Source: Pimelobacter simplex
GTDB lineage: Bacteria; Actinomycetota; Actinomycetes; Propionibacteriales; Nocardioidaceae
Direction: 5' to 3'
DNA length: 64,000 bases
Assembly: GCF_024662235.1 (NCBI RefSeq)
Contig: NZ_CP096276.1
Span: 1,364,001 to 1,428,000, forward strand
Under the pieces are notes generated by a model. It was not told the DNA's origin. It worked only from the letters and a program-made list of their open reading frames with translations, and searched no databases. Positions 34,609 through 46,501 of this stretch are shown here, in pieces (the stretch's first letter is position 1; the number at the start of each line of letters is the position of its first letter). Position numbers and translations under genes: made by a program.

Positions 34609-34636
34609 TCTCAATTTAACAACTTAATACAGCCGA

Positions 34637-34645
34637 TCTACTAGA
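34637..34645 (+). promoter_or_regulatory. AT-rich pst leader with TCTACTAGA element
   Basis: The 96-base gap before pstC starts with an AT-rich block (TCAATTTAACAACTTAATACAG), strikingly unlike the surrounding GC-rich DNA. It contains TCTACTAGA. A near-identical TCTACTGGA (8 of 9) occurs before the second PstS-like gene at 42367-42375. This may be a shared regulator or promoter element. No clear PHO-box repeat is recognised. Confidence 0.35.
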
Positions 34646-34704
34646 CTTAGCGTCACGAGTTGGATCGGCCATCGGGGGCCCCGAGCGGGTAGGGGTGCCC
34701 CGTC

Positions 34705-35775
34705 ATGCCGTACAACGCCACGTCGCCACCGGCGGCGACCTCGCCGGACGAGCCGTGGGGCGGCGGTGACCACGCTGAGCACGGCGAGCAGGACGTGCCG
34801 CGCACGCTGGCGGTCCGCTACTCGCTCCAGGACCGGACCTTCCTGCACGTCGTGCGGGTGCTCGCGTTCCTGGTCCTGGTGATCACCGGGAGCATCGGGG
34901 TCTTCCTGGGCTACCAGTCGATCCCGACGCTCCAGCACTACGGGCTCTCGTTCTTCACCGAGTACCGCTGGCTGCCGAGCCAGGACATCGTCGGCATCGC
35001 CGCGGTGCTGCTCGGCACGATCCAGGTCGCGGTCATCGCGCTGCTGCTGGCGTTCCCGCTCTCGCTGCTGACCGCGCTGTTCATCACCGACTGGGCACCG
35101 TCGTGGGCGCGTCCGCTGCTGGTGCGGATGGTCGACCTGATGGCCGCGGTGCCGGGGATCGTGTTCGGCCTGTGGGTGCTCATCGTCATCCAGCCGCACG
35201 CGACGCGGGTGACGCACTGGATCAGCAAGTACTTCGACTGGATCCCGTTCTTCCACGTGCGCACCGACGTGGACTACCCGATCTGGAACCAGGCGCCCGG
35301 CTACCCGGCGTACGCCGGATCGGCCGCGATCGCCGCGCTGGCGGTGGCGATGATGATCTTCCCGATGGCGACCTCGGTGATGCGCGAGGTGTTCTCCGAG
35401 GCGCCGGTGGGGGAGAAGGAGGCGGCGCTCGCGCTCGGCGCGACGCGCTGGTCGATGGTGCGCACGGTCGTGCTGCCGTTCGGCCGCGGCGGCATCATCG
35501 GCGGCACGATGCTCGCGCTGGGCCGCGCGCTCGGCGAGACGATCTCGGTGGTGATGGTCATCTCGCAGGCCTTCGAGATCAAGCCCTACGTGCTGGAGTC
35601 CGGGACGGCGACCATCTCGGCGCTCATCGCCTCCGGCTTCAAGGAGGCCTCGCCGGCGCAGCTCTCGGCGCTGCTGACCGCGGGCTTCGTGCTCTTCGTG
35701 ATGACCCTGGTCGTCAACAGCCTGGCCGCGGTCGTCGTGGCCCGCTCGCGCGGGGGCGGGGTGACCGAGCTGTGA
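34705..35775 (+). CDS. pstC: Phosphate ABC transporter permease PstC
   Basis: This 356-residue membrane permease has a polar N-terminal tail of about 55 residues and six helices. The PstC marks are LLTALFITDWAP, LMAAVPGIVFGLW and the ATPase-coupling loop EKEAALALGATRWSMVRTVV, then LGRALGETISVVMV. It pairs with PstA to form the inner-membrane channel. ATG 34705 starts the operon after an AT-rich gap. Phosphate specificity is from family likeness only. Here the operon starts with the permease rather than with pstS, which is unusual. Confidence 0.9.
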   Translation: MPYNATSPPAATSPDEPWGGGDHAEHGEQDVPRTLAVRYSLQDRTFLHVVRVLAFLVLVITGSIGVFLGYQSIPTLQHYGLSFFTEYRWLPSQDIVGIAAVLLGTIQVAVIALLLAFPLSLLTALFITDWAPSWARPLLVRMVDLMAAVPGIVFGLWVLIVIQPHATRVTHWISKYFDWIPFFHVRTDVDYPIWNQAPGYPAYAGSAAIAALAVAMMIFPMATSVMREVFSEAPVGEKEAALALGATRWSMVRTVVLPFGRGGIIGGTMLALGRALGETISVVMVISQAFEIKPYVLESGTATISALIASGFKEASPAQLSALLTAGFVLFVMTLVVNSLAAVVVARSRGGGVTEL

Positions 35776-36884
35776 GCGTCACCTCGCCCCCCGCGCCGCG
35801 CCACCTCGCCGAGCCGGCTCCGGAGCCGCCGCCCGCTCCGGTCGAGGAGACCCTGCGCGCCGCCGGGCACCGCACCCGCGAGGACGTGCTGACCCTGCTC
35901 GGCGCCCTGGTCGGCTCGACCGCGACCACCTGGCTGCTCTACACCCGGATCCTGCCGTTCTCGGGGGCGGTCGGCTTCGTCGTCGTCTGGTACGCCGTGT
36001 TCGTCGCCTTCTACGCCGCGCTGACCGCGCTCACCCAGCCGCGCCGGATCGTCATCGACCGGGTGGTCGCGGCGATCGTGATGGCGGCGCCCGCCCTGGT
36101 CGGCCTGGCGCTGCTGAGCACCGTGGTCACCACGGTGTGGAAGGGCATGCCGGCGCTGACCCACCTCAACTTCTTCACCGACGACATGGCCGGGGTCAAG
36201 GCCGAGGACCCGTTCACCAAGGGCGGCATCGCGCACGCGATCCTCGGCACCGTCATCGAGGTCTGCATCGCGGTCGTGATCGCGATGCCCCTCGGCCTGG
36301 CCACGGCGATCTACATCTCCGAGGTCGGCGGCAAGGGCGCGGCGCTGGTGCGCACCGTCGTCGAGGCGATGACCGCGCTGCCCTCGATCGTGGCGGGCCT
36401 GTTCATCTACACGGTCTGGATCGTCAACCTCGGCATGGAGACCAGCGGCCTGGCCGCCTCGCTCGCGCTGGCCGTGATGGCGCTGCCGATCATGGCGCGG
36501 GCCAGCGAGGTGGTGCTCCGGGTGGTGCCCAACGGGCTGCGCGAGGCGTCGTACGCGCTGGGTGCGGGGCGCTGGCAGACCGTCTGGAAGGTCGTCCTGC
36601 CCACGGCCCGCCCGGGCCTGGCCACCGCGCTGATCCTCGGCGTGGCCCGAGCGGTCGGCGAGACCTCGCCGCTGCTGCTCACCTCGGGTGCCTCGACGTT
36701 CTTCAACGCCGACCCGACGCACAACCCGATGAACTCGCTGCCGCTGTTCGTCTACGCCGCCGTCAGCACCGGCAGTCCGCAGATGGAGGACCGCGCGTAC
36801 GCCGGTGCCGCCGTCCTGCTCGCCGTCGTCCTCTCGCTGTTCCTGCTCGCTCGCCTGGCTGCCAGGGGAAGGAAGAACCGATGA
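35772..36884 (+). CDS. pstA: Phosphate ABC transporter permease PstA
   Basis: This 370-residue permease partner of PstC has a Pro-rich N-terminal tail, then six helices. PstA motifs are GLATAIYISEVGGKG, MTALPSIVAGLFIYTVWI, the coupling loop NGLREASYALGAGRWQTVWKVVLP, and VARAVGETSPLLLTSG. GTG 35772 overlaps the pstC stop, and the stop overlaps the next gene (ATGA). The ATPase pstB is not next to it but about 8.7 kb downstream. Confidence 0.9.
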   Translation: MSVTSPPAPRHLAEPAPEPPPAPVEETLRAAGHRTREDVLTLLGALVGSTATTWLLYTRILPFSGAVGFVVVWYAVFVAFYAALTALTQPRRIVIDRVVAAIVMAAPALVGLALLSTVVTTVWKGMPALTHLNFFTDDMAGVKAEDPFTKGGIAHAILGTVIEVCIAVVIAMPLGLATAIYISEVGGKGAALVRTVVEAMTALPSIVAGLFIYTVWIVNLGMETSGLAASLALAVMALPIMARASEVVLRVVPNGLREASYALGAGRWQTVWKVVLPTARPGLATALILGVARAVGETSPLLLTSGASTFFNADPTHNPMNSLPLFVYAAVSTGSPQMEDRAYAGAAVLLAVVLSLFLLARLAARGRKNR

Positions 36885-45564: not shown

Positions 45565-45578
45565 CAGCGCAGCACCCC

Positions 45579-45614
45579 GCCGGTGCCGGGGAGCGGCCGC
45601 TCCCCGGCACCGGC
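45579..45614 (+). terminator. 36-bp perfect palindrome before pstB
   Basis: A perfect 36-base palindrome (GCCGGTGCCGGGGAGCGG and its complement) fills half of the gap between the Ig-like gene and pstB. It ends 8 bases before the GAAGGAGAG ribosome site of pstB. As RNA it would form a very strong hairpin, acting as terminator, attenuator or mRNA end-protection, so pstB may be expressed at a lower level than the surface genes. Confidence 0.65.
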
Positions 45615-45637
45615 ACCCCGTACGAAGGAGAGCCACC

Positions 45638-46501
45638 GTGTCCGATTCCACGCTCGTCATCCCGGCCGTCCGCGAGGACCTGCCGCCCCCGCCGCCCCCT
45701 CCGGGACCGCCCGGCGCGGGGGCTCGTCCGGGCCGGCTGGAGGCGGACGCCGTCTCGGCGTGGTTCGGCCAGCGCAAGGTCCTCGACCGGGTCTCGATCG
45801 ACATCCCCTCCGGGCAGGTGACCGCGCTCATCGGCCCTTCCGGCTGCGGCAAGTCGACCTTCCTGCGGATCCTCAACCGGATGCACGAGCTGGTCCCCGG
45901 CGCGGCGCTGGCGGGGGAGGTGCGCCTCGACGGAGAGGACATCTACGACCCCGACCGGCGCCTGACCGACGCGCGCCGCGCGATCGGCATGGTCTTTCAG
46001 AAGCCGAACCCGTTCCCGGCCATGTCGATCCAGGACAACGTGCTCGCCGGGCTGAGCCTGGTCGGCTCGCGGCTGCGCAAGTCCGAGCGCGAGGACCTGG
46101 TGGAGGAGTCGCTGACCCGGGCCGGGCTGTGGCTCGAGGTCCGCGACCGGCTCCGCCAGCCCGGCTCGGCGCTCTCCGGCGGCCAGCAGCAGCGGCTGTG
46201 CATCGCCCGCTCGCTCGCGGTCCGCCCGCGCGTGCTGCTGATGGACGAGCCCTGCTCGGCCCTCGACCCGACCTCGACGCGGGTCGTGGAGGAGACGATC
46301 CGCGAGATCGGCAGCCAGGTGACGATCGTGATCGTCACCCACAACATGCAGCAGGCGGCGCGGGTCTCCGACCGCTGCGCCTTCTTCCTGGCCGCCCACG
46401 GCACGCCGGGCGTGATCGTGGAGCAGGGGCCCACCTCGGTGATCTTCGACGACCCGCAGGACCCGCGCACCGCCGACTACGTCAACGGGCGATTCGGCTG
46501 A
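45638..46501 (+). CDS. pstB: Phosphate ABC transporter ATPase PstB
   Basis: This 287-residue ATPase has a proline-rich N-terminal tail (about 12-30), then a full PstB core. Walker A is GPSGCGKSTF followed by the PstB-typical LRILNRMHEL. The Q-loop is MVFQKPNPFPAMSIQDN, the signature LSGGQQQR, Walker B VLLMDEPCSALDP, and the switch histidine VTHNMQQAARVSD. It energises the PstC/PstA channel. GTG 45638 follows a GAAGGAGAG site. No phoU follows, though it is often next to pstB. Confidence 0.92.
   Translation: MSDSTLVIPAVREDLPPPPPPPGPPGAGARPGRLEADAVSAWFGQRKVLDRVSIDIPSGQVTALIGPSGCGKSTFLRILNRMHELVPGAALAGEVRLDGEDIYDPDRRLTDARRAIGMVFQKPNPFPAMSIQDNVLAGLSLVGSRLRKSEREDLVEESLTRAGLWLEVRDRLRQPGSALSGGQQQRLCIARSLAVRPRVLLMDEPCSALDPTSTRVVEETIREIGSQVTIVIVTHNMQQAARVSDRCAFFLAAHGTPGVIVEQGPTSVIFDDPQDPRTADYVNGRFG

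What the first reader, a model, noticed from the sequence alone, without database searches (positions are those of the whole stretch)
34609..46501. Pst-type ABC locus split by a block of surface-protein genes
A usual pst operon is pstS-C-A-B, often with phoU. Here pstC-pstA are separated from pstB by about 8.7 kb. The inserted genes are an anchored PstS, a 929-residue anchored protein with a PstS-like half, a sortase-fold protein without its catalytic residues, a second secreted PstS-like protein, a small anchored protein and a secreted Ig-like protein. All face the same way and many overlap. All the inserted products are predicted to be exported or membrane-anchored. Gene motifs are seen directly. 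That they form one machine (for example a transporter held in a cell-wall or envelope complex, or one that takes phosphate from a polymer or organic ester) is inference.
Basis: partly seen in the sequence, partly recalled or inferred. Interest (0 to 1): 0.75.

Follow-up and report, generated by a model that had tools for sequence, protein, structure and literature searches.

The report
Conserved Pst importer with surface-protein module
Genes that seem to interrupt a bacterial phosphate-uptake operon belong to a larger gene set that stays together in a range of actinobacteria, and that set includes a sortase relative whose catalytic residues are gone.

The parts
34705..35775 (+). pstC, permease (356 aa)
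   Evidence: TIGR02138 235 bits, over cut-off
35772..36884 (+). pstA, permease (370 aa); 4-nt overlap with pstC
   Evidence: TIGR00974 241 bits, over cut-off; coordinates
36881..38545 (+). S: PstS-like binding protein with signal-like N terminus and C-terminal TM (554 aa)
   Evidence: PF12849 E 9e-37; best solved relative by sequence PstS3, 4lvq, E 6e-26; hydrophobic segment 524-542
38542..41331 (+). X: 929-aa anchored protein; head domain about residues 37-360, PstS fold 362-806, C-terminal TM
41328..42239 (+). pseudosortase: sortase fold with N-terminal and C-terminal hydrophobic segments (303 aa)
   Evidence: PF04203 E 6e-14; catalytic Cys and His columns read A and R; hydropathy
42397..43689 (+). 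pbp: PstS-like protein, signal-like N terminus, no C-terminal anchor (430 aa)
   Evidence: PF12849 E 7e-8, over cut-off
43719..44327 (+). small: 202-aa protein with one N-terminal hydrophobic segment, no known family; its C-terminal part resembles a stretch of ig
   Evidence: found in 24 of 50 public loci with full flanks
44362..45564 (+). ig: secreted protein with Big_3_5 Ig-like domains (400 aa)
   Evidence: PF16640 E 5e-20
45638..46501 (+). pstB, ATPase (287 aa)
   Evidence: TIGR00972 328 bits, cut-off 343

Best explanation
The block is one functional system: a Pst-type ABC importer (PstC-PstA-PstB) whose binding-protein side is built into the cell envelope. PstS is tethered by a C-terminal TM. 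X is a second tethered PstS-fold protein carrying a cysteine-rich head. A third PstS-fold protein is secreted. A non-catalytic sortase with membrane segments is made from the same operon and most likely acts as a scaffold that docks the tethered proteins near the permease. Ig-like proteins, and in other lineages WxL-like and WxLIP-like proteins, would link the assembly to the wall. Ligand would be caught outside and handed inward to PstS and the permease. Shown: gene set, order, co-segregation of most parts, loss of sortase catalytic residues, predicted PstS fold of X, PHO-box motifs before type II copies. Inferred: import, physical complex, scaffold role, relay. Type II most likely takes phosphate under Pho control; the window's type I copy has probably moved to another ligand or another signal.
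For: C-A-S-X-srt in that order in 50 of 50 loci with at least 9 kb on both sides of X (50 of the 79 loci kept from 242 confirmed stretches); B in 50 of 50, pbp in 48 of 50. A second copy in the same genome, C1:420-431 kb, X 38% identical. Search by a pseudosortase alone: X found in 16 of 20 hand-picked strong loci; in the other 4 (L129, L130, L135, L137) the contig ends about 0.1-4.1 kb upstream of the gene; 3 of the 16 (L143, L144, L145) are contigs already found through X, so 13 of 17 are new. Sortase Cys column: no Cys in 79 homologues (one a gap), against Cys in 7 of 7 sortases of this genome used as reference; His column R70 K7 H2; no Cys in 8 of 8 and 20 of 20 further copies. Type II, chosen by the PstS site, is also monophyletic in trees of C, A, X and srt. 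4-nt overlaps: C/A 31 of 72, A/S 63 of 76, S/X 70 of 76, X/srt 76 of 79. GTTCA[CT] upstream: type II 31 of 31 loci, 39 sites against 4.8 in shuffles.
Against: No expression, transport or interaction data. The window's own copy shows no PHO-box motif in the 300 bp examined, and its PstS is changed at three phosphate-contact positions (S38A, S139A, T141V; E. coli numbering and roles recalled). A canonical pst locus in the same genome may already cover phosphate. The tree of B supports the grouping less well (type II Jaccard 0.90, type III 0.43, window lineage support 0.20) and the remaining type I copies are not one clade for S (Jaccard 0.68). Within the fetched stretches pstB was not found in 4 of the 20 loci picked by pseudosortase (L128, L129, L130, L132), none of which reaches past the start of pstC. 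X was found in 7 of 396 genomes of the phylum and 40 of 149 of the family, own genome included, so it is not universal. No complex could be predicted with these tools.
Confidence: 0.6

Rival explanations
1. The ABC core works mainly as a sensor, as PstSCAB does with PhoU in other bacteria (recalled), and the surface proteins report wall or surface ligand state rather than feed a transporter.
For: Two extra PstS-fold proteins, of which X shows no recognisable phosphate motifs in a profile alignment too weak to rely on (E 0.24); a canonical pst locus coexists in the genome; type I is hardly ever preceded by the PHO-box motif (1 of 17).
Against: Both permeases and PstB are kept with the core in 50 of 50 loci, and the permeases score as PstC and PstA equivalogs. 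Whether a regulator is a constant neighbour was not tested.
Confidence: 0.15
2. It is an importer, but not of orthophosphate: the ligand is a phosphate ester, another oxyanion or a wall-derived phosphorylated compound.
For: Each of the site types seen in 78 S domains of types I and II (one of them partly gapped) differs from the PstS3 reference in at least one of seven side-chain positions: 33 have E for D56, the window and seven others A, A, V at S38, S139 and T141, and 27 have His and 6 Gln in place of R135.
Against: Type II keeps six of those seven positions and lies behind PHO-box motifs, which fits phosphate.
Confidence: 0.3
3. A WxL-like surface or adhesion complex in which the Pst genes are passengers.
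For: WxLIP-like proteins (PF06030; 2 of 5 scanned over cut-off, 2 below, 1 none) and WxL-like matches (PF13731, L086 and L119, both below cut-off) occur in the block of some lineages.
Against: Those proteins are not in the window copy and vary; the constant part is the ABC core, S, X and the pseudosortase.
Confidence: 0.1
4. An ordinary duplicated pst operon with unrelated surface genes inserted by chance.
For: The window copy seen alone.
Against: Conserved core order in 50 of 50, recovery starting from the pseudosortase, and flanks that differ: lgt and gltB are shared only with L024 among the loci searched.
Confidence: 0.03

Closest known systems
PstSCAB phosphate ABC importer (E. coli type)
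   Same: PstC, PstA, PstB and a PstS-family binding protein; PHO-box motifs before type II copies
   Different: anchored PstS, two further PstS-fold proteins, pseudosortase, changed ligand positions; none of the nine window genes matched a PhoU model (top 25 matches shown for pstA and pstB)
Mycobacterium tuberculosis PstS3 (4lvq) and PstS1 (1pc3)
   Same: PstS3 is the best solved match of S by sequence and, tied with PstS1 and others, of X by fold
   Different: X has an extra head of about 320 residues and a C-terminal TM; its phosphate motifs are not recognisable in a weak alignment
Class E sortases
   Same: fold and best family: NF033747 E 1e-19, but 71 bits against a cut-off of 160
   Different: catalytic Cys and His lost; two or more C-terminal hydrophobic segments in 76 of 77 and an LLPN end in 56 of 77
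WxL / WxLIP surface systems of Firmicutes (their function is recalled)
   Same: WxLIP-like and WxL-like proteins in some lineages of the block
   Different: not found in the window copy; here tied to an ABC importer
Neocarzinostatin fold

Membership tests
Pst phosphate importer | PstC and PstA permeases | tested here: met
   TIGR02138 and TIGR00974 over cut-off
Pst phosphate importer | PstB ATPase | tested here: met
   best of 194 NCBIfam matches is TIGR00972, E 2e-98, 328 bits, slightly under its cut-off of 343
Pst phosphate importer | PstS with intact phosphate site | tested here: not met
   window S reads A, A, V at three contact positions (roles recalled); TIGR00975 below cut-off
Pst phosphate importer | control by PhoP (PHO box) | tested here: inconclusive
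   no GTTCA[CT] in the 300 bp examined before the window's pstC; present in 31 of 31 type II loci. A degenerate box or a distant promoter is not excluded
Pst phosphate importer | transports phosphate | not testable with these tools
   needs an uptake assay
Active class E sortase | catalytic Cys and His | tested here: not met
   Cys column A, His column R in the window copy
Active class E sortase | sortase fold | tested here: met
   PF04203 52 bits, over cut-off; by sequence profile, no structure was predicted
WxL surface system | WxL and WxLIP proteins | tested here: not met
   no PF13731 or PF06030 match at E 0.1 among the window's nine proteins; PF06030 over cut-off in L124 and L126
Neocarzinostatin family | neocarzinostatin fold in the head of X | tested here: inconclusive

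The most novel reading that the evidence does not exclude
An envelope-spanning ABC importer in which a dead sortase serves as the membrane hub for a fixed relay of three PstS-fold proteins, so that ligand is passed from the wall to the permease; the type I branch has left phosphate for a new ligand.
Probability: 0.3. Interest if true: 0.8.

Novelty: new variant of a known kind. Interest (0 to 1): 0.62.

Why it matters
Sortases are known as transpeptidases (recalled); a family that has lost catalysis in all copies read and is tied to an ABC importer would be a new use of the fold. The block also suggests that a Pst-type core can carry several envelope-tethered binding proteins, and it offers a natural pair (type I and type II in one genome) to ask how such a system changes ligand or regulation.

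Tried and rejected

Limits of the counts. HMMs were seeded from the window and L009 copies and rebuilt on hits, so very divergent members may be missed. In one search the S seed from L009 was in a wrong frame; rebuilt it before any count used here. Of the 79 public loci, 29 were left out for short flanks. The reference sortases are 7 of the genome's 9 other PF04203 matches. The 20 loci were hand-picked from the strong matches, from 18 genomes. In one search the stretch is the 300 bp ending 30 bp before the pstC domain match (before pstB in pstB-first loci), so it can include coding bases; the shuffles are first-order resamplings, not exact dinucleotide shuffles. Type II was set there by the PstS site (E at D56, R at R135), so '33 of 33' for that site would be circular and is not used; the PHO box and the trees of other proteins are independent of it. 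The one type I locus with a site (L032) is a second copy whose S is cut by the locus end and could not be typed; I read it as type II, after the fact. pstB-first loci: 8 of 21 with a site against 2.3 in shuffles, 10 sites against 2.5. On the other strand: 2 (type II), 3 (type I), 7 (pstB-first) sites. Single GTTCA[CT] sites are common: 8 on one strand of the 17-kb L010. Trees used 62 operons plus 6 of the 7 type III loci (L121 left out); the PstS site of type III was not examined. In some searches only 2 and at most 6 candidates per genome were scored and several matches cover only the PstS half of X (4 of the 7 genomes), so the prevalences are rough. The figure of 40 of 296 genomes is a hand count.

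Full report
The observation. The nine genes lie on the + strand between lgt (33589-34608) and gltB (46694-51298) (these two names are my reading of the translations). Starts and stops are. pstC and pstA are clear equivalogs; pstB is by far closest to the PstB model though a few bits under its cut-off. Between pstA and pstB are 8,753 bp with six genes whose products all have a signal- or TM-like segment near the N terminus. pstC/pstA, pstA/pstS, pstS/X and X/sortase-like overlap by 4 nt, which fits translational coupling; later junctions have short gaps.

Not an insertion. X (929 aa) has 331 homologues at E 1e-3 or better among 7,994 scored; the best of the 120 listed, 93% identical, is named Pimelobacter simplex. 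A scan of one genome per species confirmed 242 stretches and kept 79 loci, titled Nocardioides and relatives, Frankiales, Acidimicrobiia, Pseudonocardiales, Streptosporangiaceae, Cellulomonas, Dactylosporangium and others, plus one MAG labelled Acidobacteriota. Of these, 50 have at least 9 kb on each side of X. All 50 read pstC-pstA-pstS-X-pseudosortase in that order; pstB is present in 50, after X in 40, before pstC in 9 and unplaced in 1; pbp in 48; small in 24; ig as a separate match in 26. The pstB-first loci show that the 'split' is a matter of where pstB sits. Flanks differ: lgt and gltB are shared with L024 only, lgt and trpA also with L065.

Two copies in one genome. C1:420-431 kb of the same assembly holds pstC-pstA-pstS-X-pseudosortase-pbp-pstB, with pbp fused to an Ig-like region and no small gene detected; X is 38% identical to the window's (35% in the alignment). 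I call copies with the PstS site of this one type II and the rest type I. In L026, L032 and L039 a type I block is followed directly by pstC-pstA-pstS of a further copy. In trees, type II (28 operons) is monophyletic for C, A, S, X and srt (support 0.95 to 1.0) but not quite for B (Jaccard 0.90); the window's lineage (15 operons) is monophyletic for all six proteins, although for B with support of only 0.20; the other 19 type I operons form one group in A, X and srt (for X with support of only 0.05) but not in C, B (Jaccard 0.95 each) or S (0.68). On the whole the parts have diverged together. A third, more distant type (L119-L124, L126) keeps C, A, S, X and the pseudosortase with extra genes, mostly between X and the pseudosortase; in L123 the order is pbp-X-srt-B-C-A-S.

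Test from another side. A search of 296 genomes of the class with one type III pseudosortase gave 101 genomes with matches at 1e-10; the weaker matches cover only part of the query and look like ordinary sortases. By hand count 40 genomes have a strong match, E 6e-25 or better. Twenty of these strong loci were fetched without regard to X: X was found in 16, and the other four end at a contig edge close upstream; three of the 16 are contigs already known through X. pstB was seen in 16 of the 20; the other four stretches (L128, L129, L130, L132) do not reach past the start of pstC. Prevalence is modest: X in 7 of 396 genomes of the phylum and 40 of 149 of the family at 1e-20, own genome included, with limited scoring.

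The pseudosortase. Against seven other sortases of the same genome, the catalytic Cys column holds A42, S25, G8, T2, V1 and one gap in 79 homologues, and the His column R70, K7, H2. Eight and twenty further copies also lack Cys. Loss of catalysis with conservation of the gene argues for a binding or scaffold role; that step is inference. Two or more C-terminal hydrophobic segments: 76 of 77.

Regulation. GTTCACC is the most conserved PHO-box motif in S. coelicolor, and PHO boxes are pairs of 11-nt direct repeats (PMC4415409, passages). In the 300 bp examined upstream, GTTCA[CT] occurs in 31 of 31 type II loci (39 sites; shuffles 4.8 on average, maximum 11; 2 on the reverse strand), in 1 of 17 type I loci, that one probably a type II copy, and in 8 of 21 pstB-first loci (2.3 expected). 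The canonical pst of the genome shows GTTCACC with a second GTTCA 11 nt on, about 240 bp before its PstS domain. The window's copy has none in that stretch.

Surface partners. In pstB-first loci a TM protein sits between ig and small; in L038 it matches WxLIP (PF06030) just below cut-off and in L060 not at all. In type III loci the like protein matches over cut-off in L124 and L126 and below it in L122; L119 has a WxL-like match below cut-off. These variable proteins suggest wall attachment. In the window, small and ig share a 57-residue stretch at 35% identity (E 6e-6 for the single comparison).

Judgement. That the core is a conserved functional unit is, I think, near certain. That it imports a phosphate-like ligand is likely (about 0.7), more so for type II. 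That the pseudosortase holds tethered binding proteins in a relay is a hypothesis (about 0.3). No transport, binding or interaction was measured.

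Noticed in passing
L009 5619-15791 (same genome, C1:420.6-430.8 kb): Second copy of the block, preceded by a PHO-box motif, with pbp fused to an Ig-like region.
   Followed up: yes
L010, L011 (same genome): A canonical pst locus (L010: S, C, A, B) and another locus with two PstA-like permeases, a PstB-like ATPase and a PBP_like_2 protein (L011), so the genome holds four Pst-like sets.
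   Followed up: partly
window 43719-44327 and 44362-45564: small and ig share a 57-residue stretch, 35% identical, E 6e-6 in a single comparison, so they may hold a common domain.
   Followed up: partly
L062 4624-5355: The small protein here ends in an LPRTG-type sorting signal; 1 of 33 small proteins has such a motif.
   Followed up: no
L068: pstB-C-A-S-X-pseudosortase-pbp in a MAG labelled Acidobacteriota; may be transfer or misbinning.
   Followed up: no
L070 15562-16331; L088 13566-15246: pstB (L070) and pbp (L088) match as pieces from different open frames, perhaps frameshifts or assembly errors.
   Followed up: no
L035 21117-21812: An extra 232-aa open frame between ig and pstB, signal- and TM-like by eye, with no Pfam match at E 0.1.
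   Followed up: no
L102 13680-16205: Two pbp matches in tandem within the block.
   Followed up: no
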